The notes below the pieces were generated by a model. The model was not told the origin of the DNA. It saw only the letters and a program-made list of their open reading frames with translations, and made no database searches. Both the position numbers and the translations under genes were made by a program. A DNA stretch of 64,000 bases, taken from contig JAGCWA010000057.1 in the NCBI GenBank assembly GCA_017962085.1, positions 1-64,000 of the forward strand, written 5' to 3'. This document shows positions 1-10,595 of this stretch, piece by piece (the stretch's first letter is position 1; each line of letters begins with the position of its first letter). This DNA comes from Paludibacteraceae bacterium (lineage in GTDB: Bacteria; Bacteroidota; Bacteroidia; Bacteroidales; Paludibacteraceae).

Positions 1-825
1 CGCACATTCGTTTTTGTGCGGGAGATTGAGGAACTCTTGAAAAACAACCTGATTAAGGGTGGTGATTTGGACAATGCGATAGTTATATATGACAAGGAGA
101 TGAGCCAGGCGGATATAGACCGTTTGACTTCCTTATTGGGCATGGATCCAATATCTGTCTCCAGCCTTGGTTATTTGCAGAAGCGTCCGCTGGCGTTCGA
201 CAATTAGCCAGCACGTCACAAACTCTTGGATGTGATGGGTGATTTGGCATTGATCGGTAAGCCTATCAAGGGACGTGTGATTGCCCATTGCCCTGGACAT
301 AAGTTGAACACGGATTTCGCGAAGAAGGTTTATAAGAACCTGAAGCGTCAGGAGGTGATCATCCCTCATTATGATCCGACGGTTCCGCCGTTGATGGACA
401 TAAACAAGATCAAGCAACTGTTGCCGCATCGTTGGCCAATGCTCTTGATTGATAGGATTATCGAGGTGAAGGAGCGCGGTGTTGTGGGCGTGAAGAATGT
501 CTCTGGAAACGAGAACTTCTTCTGCGGTCACTTCCCTGAGGAGCCAGTCATGCCGGGTGTGCTTTTGGTTGAGGCCATGGCGCAGACGGGTGGTATCTTG
601 GTGTTAAGCAAGTTGGACGATCCTGACAAGTATTCCACCTATTTCCTTTCTATAGATAAGGTGAAGTTCAGAAACAAGGTGGTGCCGGGAGACACCGTTA
701 TTTTCAAATTGGATTTGTTGACGGATATCCGTAGAGGGTGTGCCTATATGAAGGGGTATGCCATTGTGGCGGAGAAGATTGTGGCGGAGGCTGAGTTCCT
801 TGCCCAAGTTGTGAAGAATAAGTAA
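1..825 (+). pseudogene. lpxC-fabZ: lpxC-fabZ fusion (5' partial), interrupted by in-frame TAG
   Basis: This is the distal part of the bifunctional UDP-3-O-acyl-GlcNAc deacetylase / 3-hydroxyacyl-ACP dehydratase typical of Bacteroidota; its 5' end lies outside the window. Frame 1 is open from base 1 to an amber codon at 205-207. It then continues in the same frame with PARHKLLDVMGDLALIG, the conserved LpxC segment whose His and Asp bind the catalytic zinc, then SGH-like CPGHKLN, then a full FabZ domain, ending at TAA 823-825. Homologous fusions, from memory, carry Glu (GAG) at the TAG position, so a single G-to-T change explains it. LpxC is normally essential, so the stop is a sequencing or assembly error, a read-through site, or a real lesion compensated elsewhere. 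TAG is an ordinary stop in this genome (nqrA ends in TAG; an RF1 gene is present). Confidence 0.85.
394..825 (+). CDS. fabZ: FabZ domain of the fusion, 3-hydroxyacyl-ACP dehydratase
   Basis: This is the C-terminal hot-dog domain of the fusion, about 143 residues from the ATG at 394 (MDINKIKQLLPHRWPMLLID). It dehydrates 3-hydroxyacyl-ACP in cytoplasmic type II fatty acid synthesis. The catalytic His and Glu appear in the segments CGHFPEEPVMPG and LLVEAMAQTGG. In an intact gene it is translated as part of LpxC-FabZ. If the amber at 205 is real, ATG 226 or ATG 394 could allow re-initiation of a FabZ-only product, because 394 coincides with the start of stand-alone FabZ proteins. There is no obvious Shine-Dalgarno site before 394, so independent translation is speculative. 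Confidence 0.75.
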   Translation: MDINKIKQLLPHRWPMLLIDRIIEVKERGVVGVKNVSGNENFFCGHFPEEPVMPGVLLVEAMAQTGGILVLSKLDDPDKYSTYFLSIDKVKFRNKVVPGDTVIFKLDLLTDIRRGCAYMKGYAIVAEKIVAEAEFLAQVVKNK

Positions 826-840
826 TTGAATTAGTATTTT

Positions 841-1620
841 ATGGTACAAGAAATGTCATTTATCCATCCGGAGGCCAAAATCGGAAAGGATGTGGAGATT
901 GGCCCGTTCGTATACATCGATAGGGATGTTGAGATTGGTGATGGATGCCAGATTATGGCGCATGCGACTATTTTGAGCGGTGCGCGGATCGGCAAGAACG
1001 TGAAGATTTTTCCTAATGCGGTCATTTCCGCTATCCCACAGGACTTGAAGTTCAAGGGGGAGGAGACTACGGCTGTCATTGGCGACAATACGACTATCCG
1101 TGAATGTGCTACGGTGAATCGAGGAACTGCGTCTAAGGGAACGACTATCGTCGGCTCGAATTGTTTGATCATGGCTTATGCCCATATCGCCCATGATTGC
1201 AGGGTGGCGAATAATGTGATCATCGGTAACGCCTCGCAGATTGCGGGTGAGGTTCAGATTGATGATTGGGCTATCCTTTCAGGAAGTGTGTTGGTACATC
1301 AATTCTCTCATATTGGTGCTCATGTAATAATACAAGGTGGTTCCCGTGTCGGGAAGGACGTGCCTCCGTACGTGACGGCGGGTAGGGATCCTTTGAGTTA
1401 TGCGGGACTTAATCTTGTCGGTTTGCGCCGTCGAGGATTCTCCAACGATCAGATCCGTGAAATACAAGAAATATATCGCATCTTGTACCAATCTGGCTTG
1501 AACATGACGCAGGCGACGGAGAAGATATATTCCGAGATTCCTGATTCGGCAGAGAAGGAGACGGTGGTCTCTTTCCTGAAGTCGGCGGAGCGCGGTATCA
1601 TTCGAGGCTATTTCGATTAA
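841..1620 (+). CDS. lpxA: acyl-ACP--UDP-N-acetylglucosamine O-acyltransferase
   Basis: LpxA performs the first step of lipid A synthesis, moving a 3-hydroxyacyl chain from ACP to UDP-GlcNAc in the cytoplasm. The protein is 259 aa, normal for the family. It is a left-handed beta-helix of hexapeptide repeats (IG/VG/IA patterns from residue 13 to about 180) followed by a helical C-terminal domain. The AHIAHDC motif at 114-120 contains the catalytic His (H118, equivalent to E. coli H125). The IPQDLKF segment is typical. The start at 841 gives MVQEMSFIHPEA; ATG 853 (MSFIHPEA) fits the family equally well. It lies 15 bp after lpxC-fabZ, so the two are probably co-transcribed, and nqrA follows after only 27 bp. 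Confidence 0.97.
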   Translation: MVQEMSFIHPEAKIGKDVEIGPFVYIDRDVEIGDGCQIMAHATILSGARIGKNVKIFPNAVISAIPQDLKFKGEETTAVIGDNTTIRECATVNRGTASKGTTIVGSNCLIMAYAHIAHDCRVANNVIIGNASQIAGEVQIDDWAILSGSVLVHQFSHIGAHVIIQGGSRVGKDVPPYVTAGRDPLSYAGLNLVGLRRRGFSNDQIREIQEIYRILYQSGLNMTQATEKIYSEIPDSAEKETVVSFLKSAERGIIRGYFD

Positions 1621-1647: not shown

Positions 1648-3003
1648 ATGTCAGAAGTGATTAGAATTAAAAAGGGTCTGGACATTAATTTGAAGGGAAA
1701 GGCGAATGAGGTTTTCTCTAAGGCGCAGATGCCTGATGTCTTTTCTGTCAGACCTGACGATTTCCATGGCATCAAACCAAAAACCATTGTCAAGGATGGG
1801 GATTCTGTGAAGGTCGGAAGTGTTTTGTTCTATGACAAAGCGAATCCAGACTTGAAGGTTGTCTCTCCTGTCAGTGGCCAGGTGATTGCCGTGAACAGGG
1901 GTGAAAGGCGCAAGGTGCTGGACATCCGGATCAAGTCGGACGGTAATTTCGAATCTGAGCCATTCGAGAAGTGTAAACCGTCTTCCATGAGCCAAGAGCA
2001 GGTGAAGAAAGCTCTTCTCGATGCCGGTTTTTTCGCTTTCATCAAGCAACGTCCGTATGACGTGATCGCCAACCCGAATGATGCGCCTAAGGCTGTCTTC
2101 ATCTCCGGTTTCGACACGGCTCCGTTGGCTCCTAACTATGACTTCATCATGGTGGGCCGCGAGGAGGAGTTCCAATTGGGTGTTGATGCTTTGGCGAAGC
2201 TTTCAGGGGCTAAGGTTCATGTGGGTATCAATGTGGACAATGCCTCTAAGTTGTTCAAACTGACGAAGGGTATCGAGATCCACGAGTTCCAAGGTCCTCA
2301 TCCTGCAGGAAATGTGGGTGTGCAGATTCACCATGTGGATCCTATCAACAAGGGGGAAATCGTTTGGACGATCAATGCCCAGGATGTGGCCATGATCGGA
2401 AAGGCCTTCATGACGGGTGTCCTCAGCTTCTCACGTTCTATCGTTCTGGCTGGTTCTTCCGTAAAGAATCCTTGCTATTGCAAGATGATTTACGGTGCCT
2501 CCATCTCAAACATCGTGGCGAACAATATTGAGGGCGACAATGTGCGTTACATCAGCGGTAATCCGTTGACGGGCACGCAGATTCCTGCCGACGGTTTCTT
2601 GGGCGCTTTCGATTCCCAAGTGACGGTTATCCCTGAGGGAGACAAGAACAACGAGTTCTTGGGTTGGATCATGCCTCGTCTGAAGAAGTTCAGCGTTAGC
2701 CGTTCTTACTTCTCTTGGTTGCTTGGTAGCGGCAGGGAGTATGAGATCGATACGAACGTGAATGGTGGCGAGCGTGCCTTCATCATGTCGGGCGAGTATG
2801 ACAAGGTGTTCCCGATGGATATCTATCCTGAGTTCCTCGTGAAGGCTATCCTCGCTCGTGACATCGATAAGATGGAGCAGTTGGGTATCTACGAGGTGGC
2901 ACCGGAGGATTTCGCTCTGTGCGAGTTCGTATGTACTTCTAAGATTGAGACGCAACGAATCGTGCGCGAGGGGTTGGATTACCTGCGCAAGGAGTTGGCT
3001 TAG
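1648..3003 (+). CDS. nqrA: Na+-translocating NADH:quinone reductase subunit A
   Basis: This is the first gene of a complete nqrABCDEF operon. NqrA is the peripheral cytoplasmic subunit of the sodium-pumping NADH:quinone oxidoreductase and lies close to the quinone site. The 451-aa product has the family N-terminus (IRIKKGLDINLKGK) and a lipoyl-like barrel segment (VVSPVSGQVIAVNRGERRKV). Length is normal. It ends in TAG, evidence that amber is a standard stop here. The gap to lpxA is 27 bp with no terminator, so transcription may run in from the lipid A genes. Confidence 0.96.
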   Translation: MSEVIRIKKGLDINLKGKANEVFSKAQMPDVFSVRPDDFHGIKPKTIVKDGDSVKVGSVLFYDKANPDLKVVSPVSGQVIAVNRGERRKVLDIRIKSDGNFESEPFEKCKPSSMSQEQVKKALLDAGFFAFIKQRPYDVIANPNDAPKAVFISGFDTAPLAPNYDFIMVGREEEFQLGVDALAKLSGAKVHVGINVDNASKLFKLTKGIEIHEFQGPHPAGNVGVQIHHVDPINKGEIVWTINAQDVAMIGKAFMTGVLSFSRSIVLAGSSVKNPCYCKMIYGASISNIVANNIEGDNVRYISGNPLTGTQIPADGFLGAFDSQVTVIPEGDKNNEFLGWIMPRLKKFSVSRSYFSWLLGSGREYEIDTNVNGGERAFIMSGEYDKVFPMDIYPEFLVKAILARDIDKMEQLGIYEVAPEDFALCEFVCTSKIETQRIVREGLDYLRKELA

Positions 3004-3034
3004 TGAATGTGTAATAAATTAAAATGATATAAAA

Positions 3035-4225
3035 TTGAAAGCGTTAAGAAATTTTCTCGACAAAGTGAAACCGTCTTTTGAGGAAGGCGGAAAATTTCAC
3101 GCATTTCGCTCTGTGTTCGACGGATTCGAGACCTTCTTGTTCGTCCCTAACACAACAGCGAAGAGAGGAAGCCACATTCATGACTGCATCGACTCCAAGC
3201 GTGCGATGTCAATGGTCGTGATAGCGTTGATACCAGCTCTTTTGTTTGGTATGTACAACGTTGGTTTCCAACACTATTTAGTGCATGGTGAGGAGGCCTC
3301 TTTCTGGGCGACGTTCTTGTTCGGCTTCTTGGCAGTGTTGCCTAAGATCGTCGTTGCGTACGCCGTCGGTTTGGGTATCGAGTTCGTCGTTGCTCAATGG
3401 AGAGGTGAGGAGATCCAGGAGGGTTTCCTTGTTTCCGGTATGTTGATTCCTTTGATCGTCCCTGTTGAGTGCCCATTGTGGATTCTCGCGGTTGCGACTG
3501 CTTTCGCGGTGATATTCGCAAAGGAGGTATTCGGTGGTACTGGATATAATGTCTTTAATGTGGCGCTGATCACGCGTGCCTTCTTGTTCTTCGCTTACCC
3601 TGTCAAGATGTCTGGTGACGCTGTATGGGTGGCAAAGGATGCTTTGTGTGGCGGTGTTGGCAGCGAGAACGCATTGTTGGACGGTGTGACGGGTGCTACC
3701 CCTCTCGGACAAGTCTCTACGGGAGCTACTGAGATCACGGATGCGCTCGGTTCCGCTATGTCCCCAATGGATATGGTCACGGGCCTTTACCCAGGTTCTA
3801 TCGGTGAGACCAGCGTGATCGCCATCGGCATCGGTGCCATCATCCTTTTGTGGACGGGCATCGCAAGCTGGAAGACGATGTTGTCTGTCTTCGCGGGTGG
3901 TATCCTGACGGCTTTGATGTTCAATTCGATCGGTGCGAACGAAGTGATGAATTTGCCTTGGTACGAGCACATCCTTTTGGGTGGCTTCTGCTTCGGTGCG
4001 GTCTTCATGGCTACTGACCCTGTCACTTCCCCTAGGACGGAGTGCGGTAAGTACATCTATGGATTCCTGATCGGTTTCGTCGCCATTGTTATCCGTTGCT
4101 TGAACCCAGGTTATCCGGAGGGTATGATGTTGGCTATTCTGCTGATGAACCTCTTCGCTCCGTTGATCGACCACTGCTTCGTTCAGGCTAATGTCAAGAG
4201 AAGGTTGAAACGTGCTAATAGATAA
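3035..4225 (+). CDS. nqrB: Na+-translocating NADH:quinone reductase subunit B
   Basis: NqrB is a large integral membrane subunit that carries covalent FMN and forms part of the Na+ path. The 396-aa protein has about ten hydrophobic helices. DGVTGATP at residues 217-223 matches the flavinylation consensus, with Thr222 the expected attachment site. The reading frame begins with TTG at 3035 (KALRNFLDKVKPSFEEGG). This matches homologues from their first residue. The nearby ATG at 3024 is out of frame and runs into a stop after two codons. TTG is therefore the likely start, possibly lowering translation. Flavin attachment needs an ApbE transferase, not encoded in this window. Confidence 0.95.
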   Translation: MKALRNFLDKVKPSFEEGGKFHAFRSVFDGFETFLFVPNTTAKRGSHIHDCIDSKRAMSMVVIALIPALLFGMYNVGFQHYLVHGEEASFWATFLFGFLAVLPKIVVAYAVGLGIEFVVAQWRGEEIQEGFLVSGMLIPLIVPVECPLWILAVATAFAVIFAKEVFGGTGYNVFNVALITRAFLFFAYPVKMSGDAVWVAKDALCGGVGSENALLDGVTGATPLGQVSTGATEITDALGSAMSPMDMVTGLYPGSIGETSVIAIGIGAIILLWTGIASWKTMLSVFAGGILTALMFNSIGANEVMNLPWYEHILLGGFCFGAVFMATDPVTSPRTECGKYIYGFLIGFVAIVIRCLNPGYPEGMMLAILLMNLFAPLIDHCFVQANVKRRLKRANR

Positions 4226-4245
4226 TCATTAATATCGAATAAGTC

Positions 4246-4932
4246 ATGAATACAAATAGTAATAGTTATACTATCATCTATGCTTCGGTAATGGTGATTA
4301 TCGTGGCATTCCTATTGGCCTTTGTCTCTTCTTCCTTGAAGGAAAGACAGGACACTAACGTGAAATTGGATAAGATGAAACAAATCCTTTCCTCTTTGAA
4401 CATTTCCGAGGATGAGTTGAAGCAAGACGCTGAGGCCGCTTATAACAAGTATGTTGTGGCGGATCAAATCATTGACATCAATGGTAACGTGGTTGCGGAG
4501 AATGGTGGATTTGAGGTTCCTTCAAAAAGCCTGAAAGATGCTGATTTGGAGCAGGTTCCTTTGTATGTCTGCAAGGTGAACGGAGAGACCAAGTATGTTG
4601 CTCCGTTGTATGGTGCGGGTCTTTGGGGTCCGATTTGGGGCTACATCAGCTTTAACAGCGACAAGAAGACCGTATATGGCACCTACTTCTCCCATGAGGG
4701 TGAAACTCCGGGTTTGGGTGCTGAAATCACGACGGAGGCTTTCCAATCCAGCTTCGAAGGCAAGCAATTGCAAGAGGGTGGTGATGTGAAGATCTCTGTG
4801 GTGAAGAACGGTAAGGTGACCAATTCCTCATGCGAGGTGGATGGTATCTCCGGTGGTACGATCACCTCTAAGGGTGTTGATGCGATGTTGCATGATTGCT
4901 TGAAAAGGTACGCTAATTTTTTCAATAAATAA
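4246..4932 (+). CDS. nqrC: Na+-translocating NADH:quinone reductase subunit C
   Basis: NqrC has one N-terminal membrane helix (about residues 8-29) and a periplasmic FMN-binding domain. DGISGGTITS at 199-208 is the flavinylation motif, with Thr205 the predicted FMN attachment residue. The motif has Gly where many proteobacterial sequences have Ala (SGAT). At 228 aa it is slightly shorter than proteobacterial NqrC. The segment SHEGETPGLGAEI is also characteristic. It sits 20 bp after nqrB and 12 bp before nqrD. Confidence 0.95.
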   Translation: MNTNSNSYTIIYASVMVIIVAFLLAFVSSSLKERQDTNVKLDKMKQILSSLNISEDELKQDAEAAYNKYVVADQIIDINGNVVAENGGFEVPSKSLKDADLEQVPLYVCKVNGETKYVAPLYGAGLWGPIWGYISFNSDKKTVYGTYFSHEGETPGLGAEITTEAFQSSFEGKQLQEGGDVKISVVKNGKVTNSSCEVDGISGGTITSKGVDAMLHDCLKRYANFFNK

Positions 4933-4944
4933 GGAGGATACGGT

Positions 4945-5589
4945 ATGGATTTATTTTCAAAGAAAAATAAGGAGACGTTCTTTACCCCTCTTTGGGTAAA
5001 CAACCCAGTCGCCACGCAGGTGTTGGGTATTTGTTCCGCATTGGCCGTGACTTCTAAGTTGGAGCCAGCTTTGGTGATGGGTATTTCCGTTACCATCATT
5101 GTGGCTTTGGCGAATGTGGTGATTTCATTGTTGCGTAATACGATACCGAATCGTATCCGTATCATCGTTCAGTTGGTGGTTGTGGCTACGTTGGTGACCA
5201 TCGTGAGCCAGGTGTTGAAGGCATTCGCGTACGATGTGAGCGTGCAGCTCTCCGTTTATGTGGGTCTGATCATCACGAACTGTATCCTCATGGGCCGTTT
5301 GGAGGCATTCGCTATGCAGAACAAACCATGGGAGTCATTCCTTGATGGTGTCGGAAGCGGCTTGGGTTATGCCTTGATCCTCGTGATCGTGGGATTCTTC
5401 AGAGAGCTTCTCGGTTCTGGTACATTATTGAACTTCCGTGTGATTCCTGAATGTCTGTACGTGAAGGAAGGCGGTTTCTATATGAACAACGGCTTGATGG
5501 TGTTGCCTCCGATGGCGCTCATCATCTTGGCTTGCGTCATTTGGTTCCAGCGTGCGAAGAACCCTGATTTGCAGGAAAAGAACAATTAA
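4945..5589 (+). CDS. nqrD: Na+-translocating NADH:quinone reductase subunit D
   Basis: NqrD is an integral membrane subunit related to RnfE that, with NqrE, forms the symmetric core binding an intramembrane Fe-S centre. The 214-aa product has six hydrophobic segments and the family pattern NPVATQVLGICSALAVT near the N-terminus. An unusually good Shine-Dalgarno sequence (AAGGAGG at 4931-4937, 7 nt spacer) precedes the ATG, which is rare in this phylum and fixes the start. Confidence 0.95.
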   Translation: MDLFSKKNKETFFTPLWVNNPVATQVLGICSALAVTSKLEPALVMGISVTIIVALANVVISLLRNTIPNRIRIIVQLVVVATLVTIVSQVLKAFAYDVSVQLSVYVGLIITNCILMGRLEAFAMQNKPWESFLDGVGSGLGYALILVIVGFFRELLGSGTLLNFRVIPECLYVKEGGFYMNNGLMVLPPMALIILACVIWFQRAKNPDLQEKNN

Positions 5590-5609
5590 TTCCCTAAAAG
5601 AGTATTGAA

Positions 5610-6206
5610 ATGGAATATTTGAGTTTATTTGTAAAGTCCATTTTCGTGGACAATATGATTTTCGCCTACTTCTTGGGAATGTGTTCCTATTTGGCGGTGT
5701 CGAAGAATGTGAAGACCGCATTGGGATTGGGTGTGGCCGTTACGTTCGTGTTGTTGGTGACTGTTCCTGTCAACTACTGCTTGGAGAACTACGTGTTGGC
5801 TCCTGATGCGATTGTCGAGGGCGTTGATTTGAGCTTCTTGAGCTTCATCCTCTTCATCGCGGTCATCGCCGGTATCGTTCAGATCGTGGAGATGGCGGTG
5901 GAGAAATTCAGTCCGTCGTTGTACGCTTCATTGGGTATATTCTTGCCGTTGATCGCAGTGAACTGCGCCATCATGGGTGCCAGCCTCTTCATGCAACAGA
6001 GACATTTCGAGGGCATCGGTGAGGCGACGGTTTATGCGTTCGGTTCCGGTATCGGTTGGTTGATAGCGATCGTGGCTTTGGCCGCTATCCGTGAGAAGTT
6101 GTCTTATTCGAATGTGCCTGCGCCTCTTCGTGGCTTGGGTATCACTTTCATCACGGTGGGTCTGATGGCCATGGCATTTATGTGTTTCTCTGGTTTAACC
6201 ATTTAA
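5610..6206 (+). CDS. nqrE: Na+-translocating NADH:quinone reductase subunit E
   Basis: NqrE is a membrane subunit related to RnfA, the partner of NqrD. The 198-aa protein has six predicted membrane helices and begins [16 protein letters not shown], with the conserved [19 protein letters not shown] segment; both match NqrE proteins end to end. Its cysteines (GMCSYL near residue 25 and NCAIMG near 113) are the expected ligands of the intramembrane Fe-S centre. It lies 20 bp downstream of nqrD and 18 bp upstream of nqrF. Confidence 0.95.
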
Positions 6207-6224
6207 TAGTAAGGAATATTTACG

Positions 6225-7493
6225 ATGGATGTAACTTTAATTTTAACAAGTATTGGAGTATTCCTTGTCATTATTTTGGCTTTGGTTATACTCTTGCTCG
6301 TCGCCAAGAATTTTTTGGTTTCTTCCGGCGCGGCTAAAATCACTATCAATGGTGATAGTGAGGTGGAGGTTGAGACGGGCTCTTCTTTGCTCAACACGTT
6401 GGCTGTGAATGGTGTCCATTTGCCTTCCGCTTGTGGTGGTAAGGGCTCTTGCGGTCAGTGTAAGTGCCAGGTCTTGGAGGGTGGAGGAGAGATCCTCGAC
6501 TCTGAGAAGGGCCATTTCACACGTAAGGAGCAGATGAACCACTGGCGTTTGGGTTGCCAAACGAAGGTCAAGGGTGATATGACCATCAAGGTTCCTGAGT
6601 CTGTCATGGGCGTTAAGGAATGGGAGTGTACTGTCATCGGCAACAGAAACGTCGCCAGCTTCATCAAGGAGTTCAAGGTGGCTCTTCCTAAGGGCGAACA
6701 CATGGACTTCATCCCAGGTTCTTACGCACAGATCCGTATCCCTGAGTATGATATCAACTACGCTGATTTCGACCGTGATTTGATCGGCGACCTTTATGTA
6801 CCTACTTGGGAGAAGTTCGGTATCTTCGGACTCCACCAAAAGAACACGGATCCTACTATTCGTGCTTATTCCATGGCGAACTACCCTGACGAGGGTGATA
6901 TCATCACATTGACTGTCCGTATCGCTACGCCTCCGTTCAAGCCGAAACCGGAAGTGGGCTTCATGGACGTGCCTTGTGGTATCGCTTCTACTTATATCTT
7001 TAGCTTGAAACCAGGCGACAAGGTGATGATGTCTGGTCCTTATGGTGATTTCCACCCAATCTTCGATTCTAAGCGTGAGATGATTTGGGTCGGTGGTGGT
7101 GCCGGTATGGCTCCGCTCCGTGCGCAGATCATGCACATGTTGAAGACGCTCCATACTACGGATCGTGAGATGCATTACTTCTACGGTGCCCGTGCTATCG
7201 ACGAGGTCTTCTTCATGGAGGACTTTTTGGAGATGGAGAAGGAATTCCCTAACTTCCACTTCCACTTGGCGCTTGACCGTCCGGATCCTAAGGCGGATAG
7301 CCTTGGCGTGAAGTATACGGCTGGATTCATCGCTCCTGTTATGGGTGATACTTACCTCAAGCAACACGATGCGCCAGAGGACATCGAATACTACTTGTGC
7401 GGTCCGCCGATGATGGCGAAGACAGTGCTCGATTTGCTTCATAGCCTCGGCGTAGAGGATGATATGATCCACTTCGATAACTTCGGTGCTTAA
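6225..7493 (+). CDS. nqrF: Na+-translocating NADH:quinone reductase subunit F
   Basis: NqrF is the NADH-oxidising input subunit. Residues 5-30 form a membrane anchor. Residues 36-125 are a plant-type 2Fe-2S ferredoxin domain with Cys70, Cys76, Cys79 and Cys111. The rest is a ferredoxin reductase-like FAD/NADH module, with the flavin motif RAYSMAN at 213-219, the nucleotide motif GGGAGMAP at 290-297 and a C-terminal CGPPMM segment. The length of 422 aa is normal. It is the last gene of the operon and is followed by a strong hairpin terminator. Confidence 0.96.
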   Translation: MDVTLILTSIGVFLVIILALVILLLVAKNFLVSSGAAKITINGDSEVEVETGSSLLNTLAVNGVHLPSACGGKGSCGQCKCQVLEGGGEILDSEKGHFTRKEQMNHWRLGCQTKVKGDMTIKVPESVMGVKEWECTVIGNRNVASFIKEFKVALPKGEHMDFIPGSYAQIRIPEYDINYADFDRDLIGDLYVPTWEKFGIFGLHQKNTDPTIRAYSMANYPDEGDIITLTVRIATPPFKPKPEVGFMDVPCGIASTYIFSLKPGDKVMMSGPYGDFHPIFDSKREMIWVGGGAGMAPLRAQIMHMLKTLHTTDREMHYFYGARAIDEVFFMEDFLEMEKEFPNFHFHLALDRPDPKADSLGVKYTAGFIAPVMGDTYLKQHDAPEDIEYYLCGPPMMAKTVLDLLHSLGVEDDMIHFDNFGA

Positions 7494-9485: not shown

Positions 9486-10595
9486 CTATAATTCACTTTC
9501 TTTTAATCGCTCCGCATTCTCGGCCACGATCAGTTTGTCGATGATCTCCTGGATATCTCCTCCGACAATGGCTTGCAGGTTGTAGAGCGTGAGGTTGATG
9601 CGGTGGTCGGTCACACGTCCTTGCGGATAGTTGTAGGTGCGGATTTTCGCCGAACGGTCGCCCGTGGAGACCATGGTCTTCCTTCTCGCCGCGATGTCGT
9701 CTATATATTTCTGGTGCTCCCTGTCGTATATCCTGGTACGCAGGCGGGAGAGTGCGCGTTCCTTGTTCTTCGGCTGGTCGCGTGTCTCCGTACATTCGAT
9801 GAGGATTTCCTCAGACTCGCCTGTGATCGGGTTCTTCCAGATGTAGCGGAGACGTACGCCTGATTCCACTTTGTTGACGTTCTGTCCGCCGGCACCACCT
9901 GAACGGAAGGTATCCCACTTGATCTCTCCCTCGTTGATCTGCACGTCGAATTCATCCGCCTCTGGCAGTACGGCCACGGTCGCGGCGGAGGTGTGCACGC
10001 GTCCTTGGGTCTCTGTGGCAGGCACACGTTGCACGCGGTGTACGCCAGACTCGTATTTCAGTGTTCCGTAGACATTCTCGCCCGTGACGTTGAAGATGAT
10101 CTCCTTGTAGCCACCGACGGTTCCTTCGTTGAAACTGGAGACGCTCACTTGCCAACCCTTCATTTCACAGTATTTCGCATACATCTTGAAGAGGTCTCCG
10201 GCGAACAGCGCAGCCTCGTCGCCTCCTGTTCCGCCACGGATCTCCACGACAGCGTTCTTGCAGTCCTCAGGGTCTGAAGGAATCAGGAGAAGCTTGATGT
10301 TCTCCTCCATCTCTGGAATCTTTGGCTCTAGGTCGTCCAACTCCATTTTGGCCATCTCCTTCATCTCCGCATCGTTCTCTGTTTCAAGGATTTCCTTCGC
10401 CTGCTGGATGTTGGATAATGCGCTCTGATATTCTTTCTTGGCGTTCATAATCAACTCCAAATCGTGGTACTCCTTGTTGAGTTTCACGTATCTTTTCATG
10501 TCCGCGATGACGGCGGGGTCGGTTATGAGTGTGGATATTTCCTGGAATTTATGTTCCAGTCCCTCCAGTTTTTCCAACAAAGAATTTTCAGCCAT
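9486..10595 (-). CDS. prfA: peptide chain release factor 1
   Basis: RF1 reads UAA and UAG in the ribosomal A site and triggers peptide release. The 369-aa protein has the GGQ motif (residues 236-238 in SGGAGGQNVNK), the RF1-type tripeptide PAT (192-194 in RVPATETQGR), and the acidic EIRGGTGGDEAALFA segment. Its presence shows that UAG is used for termination in this genome, which bears on the in-frame TAG in lpxC-fabZ. In many Bacteroidota genomes, from memory, prfA lies beside purM; here purM is 12.7 kb away with accessory genes between. Confidence 0.96.
   Translation of the reverse strand: MAENSLLEKLEGLEHKFQEISTLITDPAVIADMKRYVKLNKEYHDLELIMNAKKEYQSALSNIQQAKEILETENDAEMKEMAKMELDDLEPKIPEMEENIKLLLIPSDPEDCKNAVVEIRGGTGGDEAALFAGDLFKMYAKYCEMKGWQVSVSSFNEGTVGGYKEIIFNVTGENVYGTLKYESGVHRVQRVPATETQGRVHTSAATVAVLPEADEFDVQINEGEIKWDTFRSGGAGGQNVNKVESGVRLRYIWKNPITGESEEILIECTETRDQPKNKERALSRLRTRIYDREHQKYIDDIAARRKTMVSTGDRSAKIRTYNYPQGRVTDHRINLTLYNLQAIVGGDIQEIIDKLIVAENAERLKESEL

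What the first reader, a model, noticed from the sequence alone, without database searches (positions are those of the whole stretch)
199..230. In-frame amber codon just before the LpxC zinc-site motif
The frame is open across the lpxC-fabZ fusion except for TAG at 205-207. The residues on both sides are conserved and align without gap, and the next codons encode the RHKLLD motif whose His and Asp bind the catalytic zinc. LpxC is normally essential in lipid A-producing bacteria. TAG is used as a normal stop elsewhere in the window and RF1 is encoded at 9486. So this is an error, a strain-specific lesion, or a genuine recoding/suppression event. If real, the strain would make lipooligosaccharide only by read-through.
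Basis: partly seen in the sequence, partly recalled or inferred. Interest (0 to 1): 0.72.

Follow-up and report, generated by a model that had tools for sequence, protein, structure and literature searches.

The report
Stop codon at an assembly seam
The stop codon in this essential cell-envelope gene lies near the end of one assembly fragment, and an overlapping fragment of the same genome reads an ordinary glutamate there, so it is very probably an assembly or read error (or a minority strain's variant), not a new way of reading the genetic code.

Summary
TAG at 205-207 is there, in frame with lpxC-fabZ, but is not a sound feature of the organism. Window base 1 is the first base of contig C34 in a 59-contig draft. 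Contig C49 ends in the same gene; the two ends overlap end to end over 573 bases with 7 differences, and C49 reads Glu at this codon. C49 holds lpxD and the start of lpxC, the window holds lpxA: one locus in relatives, cut by the assembly. Glu stands in 56 of 56 aligned relatives; 14 of 15 other genomes of the genus have the gene, none of these with a stop. The four silent differences are transitions; the three others, TAG included, are transversions. Six exact 141-base and two more long inexact contig-end overlaps fit a short-read metagenome assembly with mixed strains. None of 46 tRNA genes called reads UAG (set incomplete), RF1 is present, and TAG ends 5 of 50 long ORFs. Error is likeliest, a minority-strain variant next; recoding has no support. 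No reads were available.

The parts
1..825 (+). 3' part of the fused lpxC-fabZ gene, cut by the start of contig C34
   Evidence: Frame and Pfam LpxC and FabA-like matches; window starts at C34:1; rest of lpxC is on C49
205..207 (+). In-frame TAG, where the overlapping contig C49 and the aligned relatives have Glu
   Evidence: Glu in 56 of 56 relatives
1..573 (+). End-to-end overlap with the start of contig C49 (C49:573-1, minus strand), 566 of 573 identical, no gap
48..48 (+). Silent C/T difference between the two contigs
78..78 (+). Silent G/A difference between the two contigs
93..93 (+). Silent C/T difference between the two contigs
318..318 (+). Silent C/T difference between the two contigs
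439..439 (+). Transversion, Met here and Leu in C49; 54 relatives have Phe (38), Met (15) or Ile (1), so C49 looks the odd one
453..453 (+). Transversion, Asp here and Glu in C49; 53 of 54 relatives have Asp, so C49 looks the odd one
841..1620 (+). lpxA, the gene that follows lpxC-fabZ in relatives
   Evidence: ORF; matched after lpxC in relatives; the name is recalled from the sequence, no family search was made of it
9486..10595 (-). prfA, release factor 1, itself ending in TAG
   Evidence: NCBIfam TIGR00019 471 bits, cut-off 423, and NF001859 491 bits, cut-off 400; stop codon

Best explanation
The TAG is one differing base in the end of a contig of a metagenome-type draft assembly, not a fixed feature of the organism's lpxC. 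The assembler broke the chromosome inside lpxC-fabZ, probably because closely related strains were mixed, and left two contigs whose ends overlap by 573 bases but were not merged. Each end carries silent differences and one or two doubtful bases of its own; in the window's end a doubtful base turns a Glu codon into TAG. Shown: the overlap, the differences, the intact reading in C49, the one-locus gene order in relatives. Inferred: strain mixture as the cause of the break, and which bases are wrong. Within this reading I think a sequencing or assembly error (about 0.65) likelier than a true variant of a minority strain (about 0.25, also listed as the first rival).
For: Window base 1 is a contig start. 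C34:1-573 and C49:573-1 overlap end to end with 7 mismatches, and C49 has Glu at the TAG codon. C49 holds the start of lpxC and lpxD upstream. Matches to lpxD, lpxC and lpxA lie in that order in 57 of 59 loci of relatives, three of them second copies of records in the named set; the other two, L236 and L243, begin inside lpxC. Four silent transitions and three transversions that change the protein; at 439 and 453 it is C49 that departs from relatives, 135 and 121 bases from its own end. Among 118 contig ends, 2 of them unreadable, six pairs share an exact 141-base end-to-end overlap, and two more long inexact ones are 96-97% alike: C1/C39, 330 bases, 10 substitutions; C40/C1, 823 bases, 29 substitutions and a gap. 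PMC7111523 (passages seen) reports perfect end overlaps set by the largest k-mer for two assemblers, fragmentation by coexisting strains, and local assembly errors.
Against: No reads could be mapped, so an error is not shown directly. The base lies 205 from the contig end, more than one 141-base k-mer inward. The rest of the window's frame is clean. A true nonsense variant of one strain would look the same in an assembly.
Confidence: 0.93

Rival explanations
1. A true nonsense variant in a minority strain of the same population: the window contig's end was assembled from that strain, in which lpxC-fabZ is broken. (This lies inside the best explanation, as its less likely half; the odds are not additive.)
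For: The overlap holds four silent transitions that look like true strain differences, so two haplotypes probably were present.
Against: In this genome the gene is single apart from the overlap and is expected to be essential in lipid A producers (recalled). The change is a transversion, as are the two other protein-changing differences, which look wrong in C49.
Confidence: 0.25
2. A real partial duplication of lpxC-fabZ: one full copy continuing from C49 and one decayed copy on C34.
For: Two sequences of the stretch exist in the assembly and they differ.
Against: The shared stretch runs exactly from one contig end to the other, with lpxD on one side and lpxA on the other, as in one locus of relatives. 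Each of the 14 other genomes of the genus that match (of 15) has the stretch once.
Confidence: 0.03
3. Recoding or suppression: TAG is read as an amino acid at this codon and the organism makes LpxC-FabZ by read-through.
For: The frame stays open and conserved after the stop.
Against: C49 has Glu, as have 56 of 56 aligned relatives. None of 46 tRNA genes called has a CUA anticodon, though the set is incomplete. RF1 is encoded and TAG ends 5 of 50 long ORFs.
Confidence: 0.01

Closest known systems
Bifunctional LpxC/FabZ fusion of Bacteroidota (NCBIfam NF009667, PRK13188.1)
   Same: LpxC then FabZ in one frame, gene order lpxD, lpxC/fabZ, lpxA. The fusion in Bacteroidetes is stated in PMC3087551 (passages seen).
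   Different: The window's copy has one stop codon and begins at a contig end; C49's copy has no stop but ends inside FabZ at its own contig end.
Contig-end overlaps and local errors of metagenome-assembled genomes (PMC7111523, passages seen)
   Same: Exact end overlaps of one recurring length, longer inexact ones in genes, doubtful bases near ends.
   Different: The overlap here is longer than 141 bases and holds mismatches; the passages seen speak of perfect overlaps.
Stop-codon recoding or amber suppression
   Same: An in-frame TAG with conserved sequence on both sides.
   Different: No suppressor tRNA seen, no conservation of the stop, and a sense codon in the overlapping contig.

Membership tests
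LpxC-FabZ fusion protein (NF009667) | Match over the curated cut-off, with both domains in one frame | tested here: met
   C49 part, 381 aa: 550 bits, cut-off 465, although cut short in FabZ; both Pfam domains. The window's own copy was searched only as two pieces, before and after the stop
LpxC-FabZ fusion protein (NF009667) | lpxD before and lpxA after the gene (usual neighbours) | tested here: met
   lpxD on C49, lpxA on the window contig; that order in 57 of 59 loci of relatives
Amber recoding or suppression | Stop codon conserved at the place in relatives | tested here: not met
   0 of 56 aligned loci; Glu in 56
Amber recoding or suppression | tRNA with a CUA anticodon | tested here: inconclusive
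   0 of 46 ARAGORN genes at the places of 47 Rfam hits; one Gly gene is counted twice because it lies in a contig seam. The 47th hit is an interrupted tRNA-like locus read as Glu(ttc). The search scored 150 of 167 candidates and no Ala, His or Ile(GAT) tRNA was seen, so the set is incomplete
Amber recoding or suppression | TAG no longer a normal stop, or RF1 lost | tested here: not met
   RF1 present; TAG ends 5 of 50 long ORFs of the window, prfA among them
Assembly seam of a draft genome | Stretch at a contig end, repeated at the end of another contig of the same genome | tested here: met
Assembly seam of a draft genome | Reads show the base unsupported or mixed | not testable with these tools
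   No reads held

The most novel reading that the evidence does not exclude
A second strain in the same gut population stably carries an amber codon in lpxC-fabZ and thrives, either without lipid A or by read-through, beside a strain with an intact gene. (The wider odds of 0.25 for a true variant also cover short-lived mutants and strains that get by in ordinary ways.)
Probability: 0.02. Interest if true: 0.5.

Novelty: not a real feature. Interest (0 to 1): 0.04.

Why it matters
It matters mainly as a caution: an in-frame stop in an essential gene near a contig end should first be checked against the other contigs of the same assembly. Here that check was nearly enough. If the stop were real it would bear on whether members of the Bacteroidales can live without LpxC.

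Tried and rejected
Second lpxC elsewhere in the genome: at E <= 0.001 only C49 and the window's own two pieces match PF03331. Suppressor tRNA: none with CUA among the 46 genes called; the hit that ARAGORN did not call in default mode is a tRNA-like locus with a 115-base insert, read as Glu(ttc) with the intron option. Stops flagged in LpxC of two other genomes of the order (G039 TAG, G044 TGA) lie outside the gene: one just before the start Met, one as the normal end. The one in-frame stop among the 56 named relatives (L242) is by its position the normal end of an unfused LpxC, with lpxA directly after it. G013 of the genus gave no match, and G054 of the order none; I did not find out why.

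Papers: two searches concerned assembly ends and the lpxC-fabZ fusion, and of the papers listed I saw passages of PMC7111523 and PMC3087551. A third search concerned a side finding, and I saw only its listing. I made no search for earlier reports of this very stop codon.

Full report
What is in the sequence. Window 1-825 is the 3' part of a fused lpxC-fabZ gene in frame 1, with TAG at 205-207. The pieces before and after the stop both match Pfam LpxC, and the piece after it also the FabA-like family.

Where it lies. The window is bases 1-64000 of contig C34 (122,902 bases) in a draft of 3,373,114 bases and 59 contigs. So the gene is cut on its 5' side by the contig start, and the stop lies 205 bases from that end.

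The other copy. A search of the same genome with the LpxC family finds C49:241-1125 (minus strand, 278 bits, no stop inside) besides two pieces in C34. C49:573-1 and C34:1-573 overlap from end to end: 566 of 573 bases identical, no gap. C49 reads a glutamate codon where the window has TAG. C49 runs on upstream into the rest of lpxC and into lpxD; the window contig runs on downstream into lpxA. Matches to lpxD, lpxC and lpxA lie in that order in 57 of 59 loci of relatives; three of the 59 are second copies of records in the named set, and the two exceptions, L236 and L243, begin inside lpxC. So C49 and C34 are most simply neighbours, and the stretch is one gene seen twice.

The seven differences. 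Window 48, 78, 93 and 318 are transitions and silent. 205, 439 and 453 are transversions and change the protein. At 205, 56 of 56 aligned loci have Glu. At 439, 54 relatives have Phe (38), Met (15) or Ile (1); the window has Met and C49 has Leu. At 453, 53 of 54 have Asp; the window has Asp and C49 has Glu. So each contig carries doubtful bases in its own terminal part: C34 at base 205, C49 at bases 121 and 135. This is what true strain differences plus errors near contig ends would give. The loci are the 56 named ones, found by peptide patterns, with records very near the window's own genome possibly left out; the nearest (91-97% identical in protein) are uncultured Paludibacteraceae or Bacteroidales, those with a named source being from yak omasum, buffalo rumen and sheep rumen.

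Relatives in whole genomes. An LpxC-FabZ match was found in 59 of 61 genomes, the own one included; G013 and G054 had none. Of 15 other genomes of the genus 14 have it, with no stop inside. Two more distant genomes were flagged with a stop, but both stops lie outside the gene. With the window's DNA as query 15 of 16 genomes of the genus match, the own one included, and only the own genome has two places.

Signs of the assembly. I compared 1500 bases from each of the 118 contig ends with each other; the two ends of one contig were unreadable. Six pairs share an exact end-to-end overlap of 141 bases. I read this as the mark of a de Bruijn assembly with k = 141, as in MEGAHIT (recalled; PMC7111523, passages seen, states the rule for IDBA-UD and metaSPAdes; a relative's record bears a k141-style contig name). 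Further pairs overlap exactly by 62 to 137 bases. Two long inexact overlaps, end to end to within one base, resemble the lpxC one: C1/C39, 330 bases, 10 substitutions (6 transitions, 4 transversions), in what looks like the EF-Tu gene; and C40/C1, 823 bases, 29 substitutions (23 transitions, 6 transversions) and one gap, in and around what looks like a Skp/OmpH-like gene (both names recalled from the translations). Less similar end overlaps (C52/C53 and C7/C17, 82-91%) and many same-direction or internal matches look like repeats, and I did not count them. Thus the lpxC seam is one of three of its kind here.

Chance. Of 1719 single substitutions in the overlap 62 give a stop; of 1146 transversions, 56.

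Recoding. Rfam finds 47 tRNA hits in the genome, with 150 of 167 candidates scored. ARAGORN genes at those places, one of them seen twice in a contig seam, none with anticodon CUA. Ala, His and Ile(GAT) tRNAs are not among them, so the set is incomplete and absence is not proof. RF1 is confirmed by two NCBIfam models. TAG ends 5 of 50 long ORFs of the window, prfA among them (the list is mechanical and includes the 199-aa piece of this gene). Nothing found supports read-through.

Verdict. The stop is real as letters of the contig and very probably not a property of the organism: most likely an error, less likely a minority-strain variant. Reads would settle which.

Noticed in passing
G000:C50:24589-24789 (minus), locus L244: A tRNA-like locus with a 115-base insert in the anticodon loop (two similar segments of about 38 bases inside), read by ARAGORN's intron mode as Glu(ttc), between an RtcB RNA ligase gene and a 673-aa ORF with a sub-threshold RING-type match. 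The 201 bases are 98-99.5% identical in 5 of 15 other genomes of the genus, where the main aligned segments around it are 93-97% identical; the other 10 show only short matches. An RNA tied to RtcB repair is possible; a tRNA relic is the plain reading.
   Followed up: partly
G000 contigs C1, C39, C40 (ends): Two more contig seams in or around genes with long inexact end overlaps (330 and 823 bases), so genes at contig ends of this genome should be read with care.
   Followed up: partly
L241, L242: Two dairy-cattle Paludibacteraceae MAGs have an LpxC match that ends near residue 303-316 with lpxA directly after, that is, no FabZ fusion at this place.
   Followed up: no
G013 (same genus): No match to the LpxC-FabZ protein or to the window's lpxC-fabZ DNA in a genome given as 93% complete; perhaps a gap.
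   Followed up: no
window 1648-7493: A run of six ORFs on the plus strand that look like the Na+-translocating NADH:quinone reductase operon (name recalled from the translations, no family search made).
   Followed up: no
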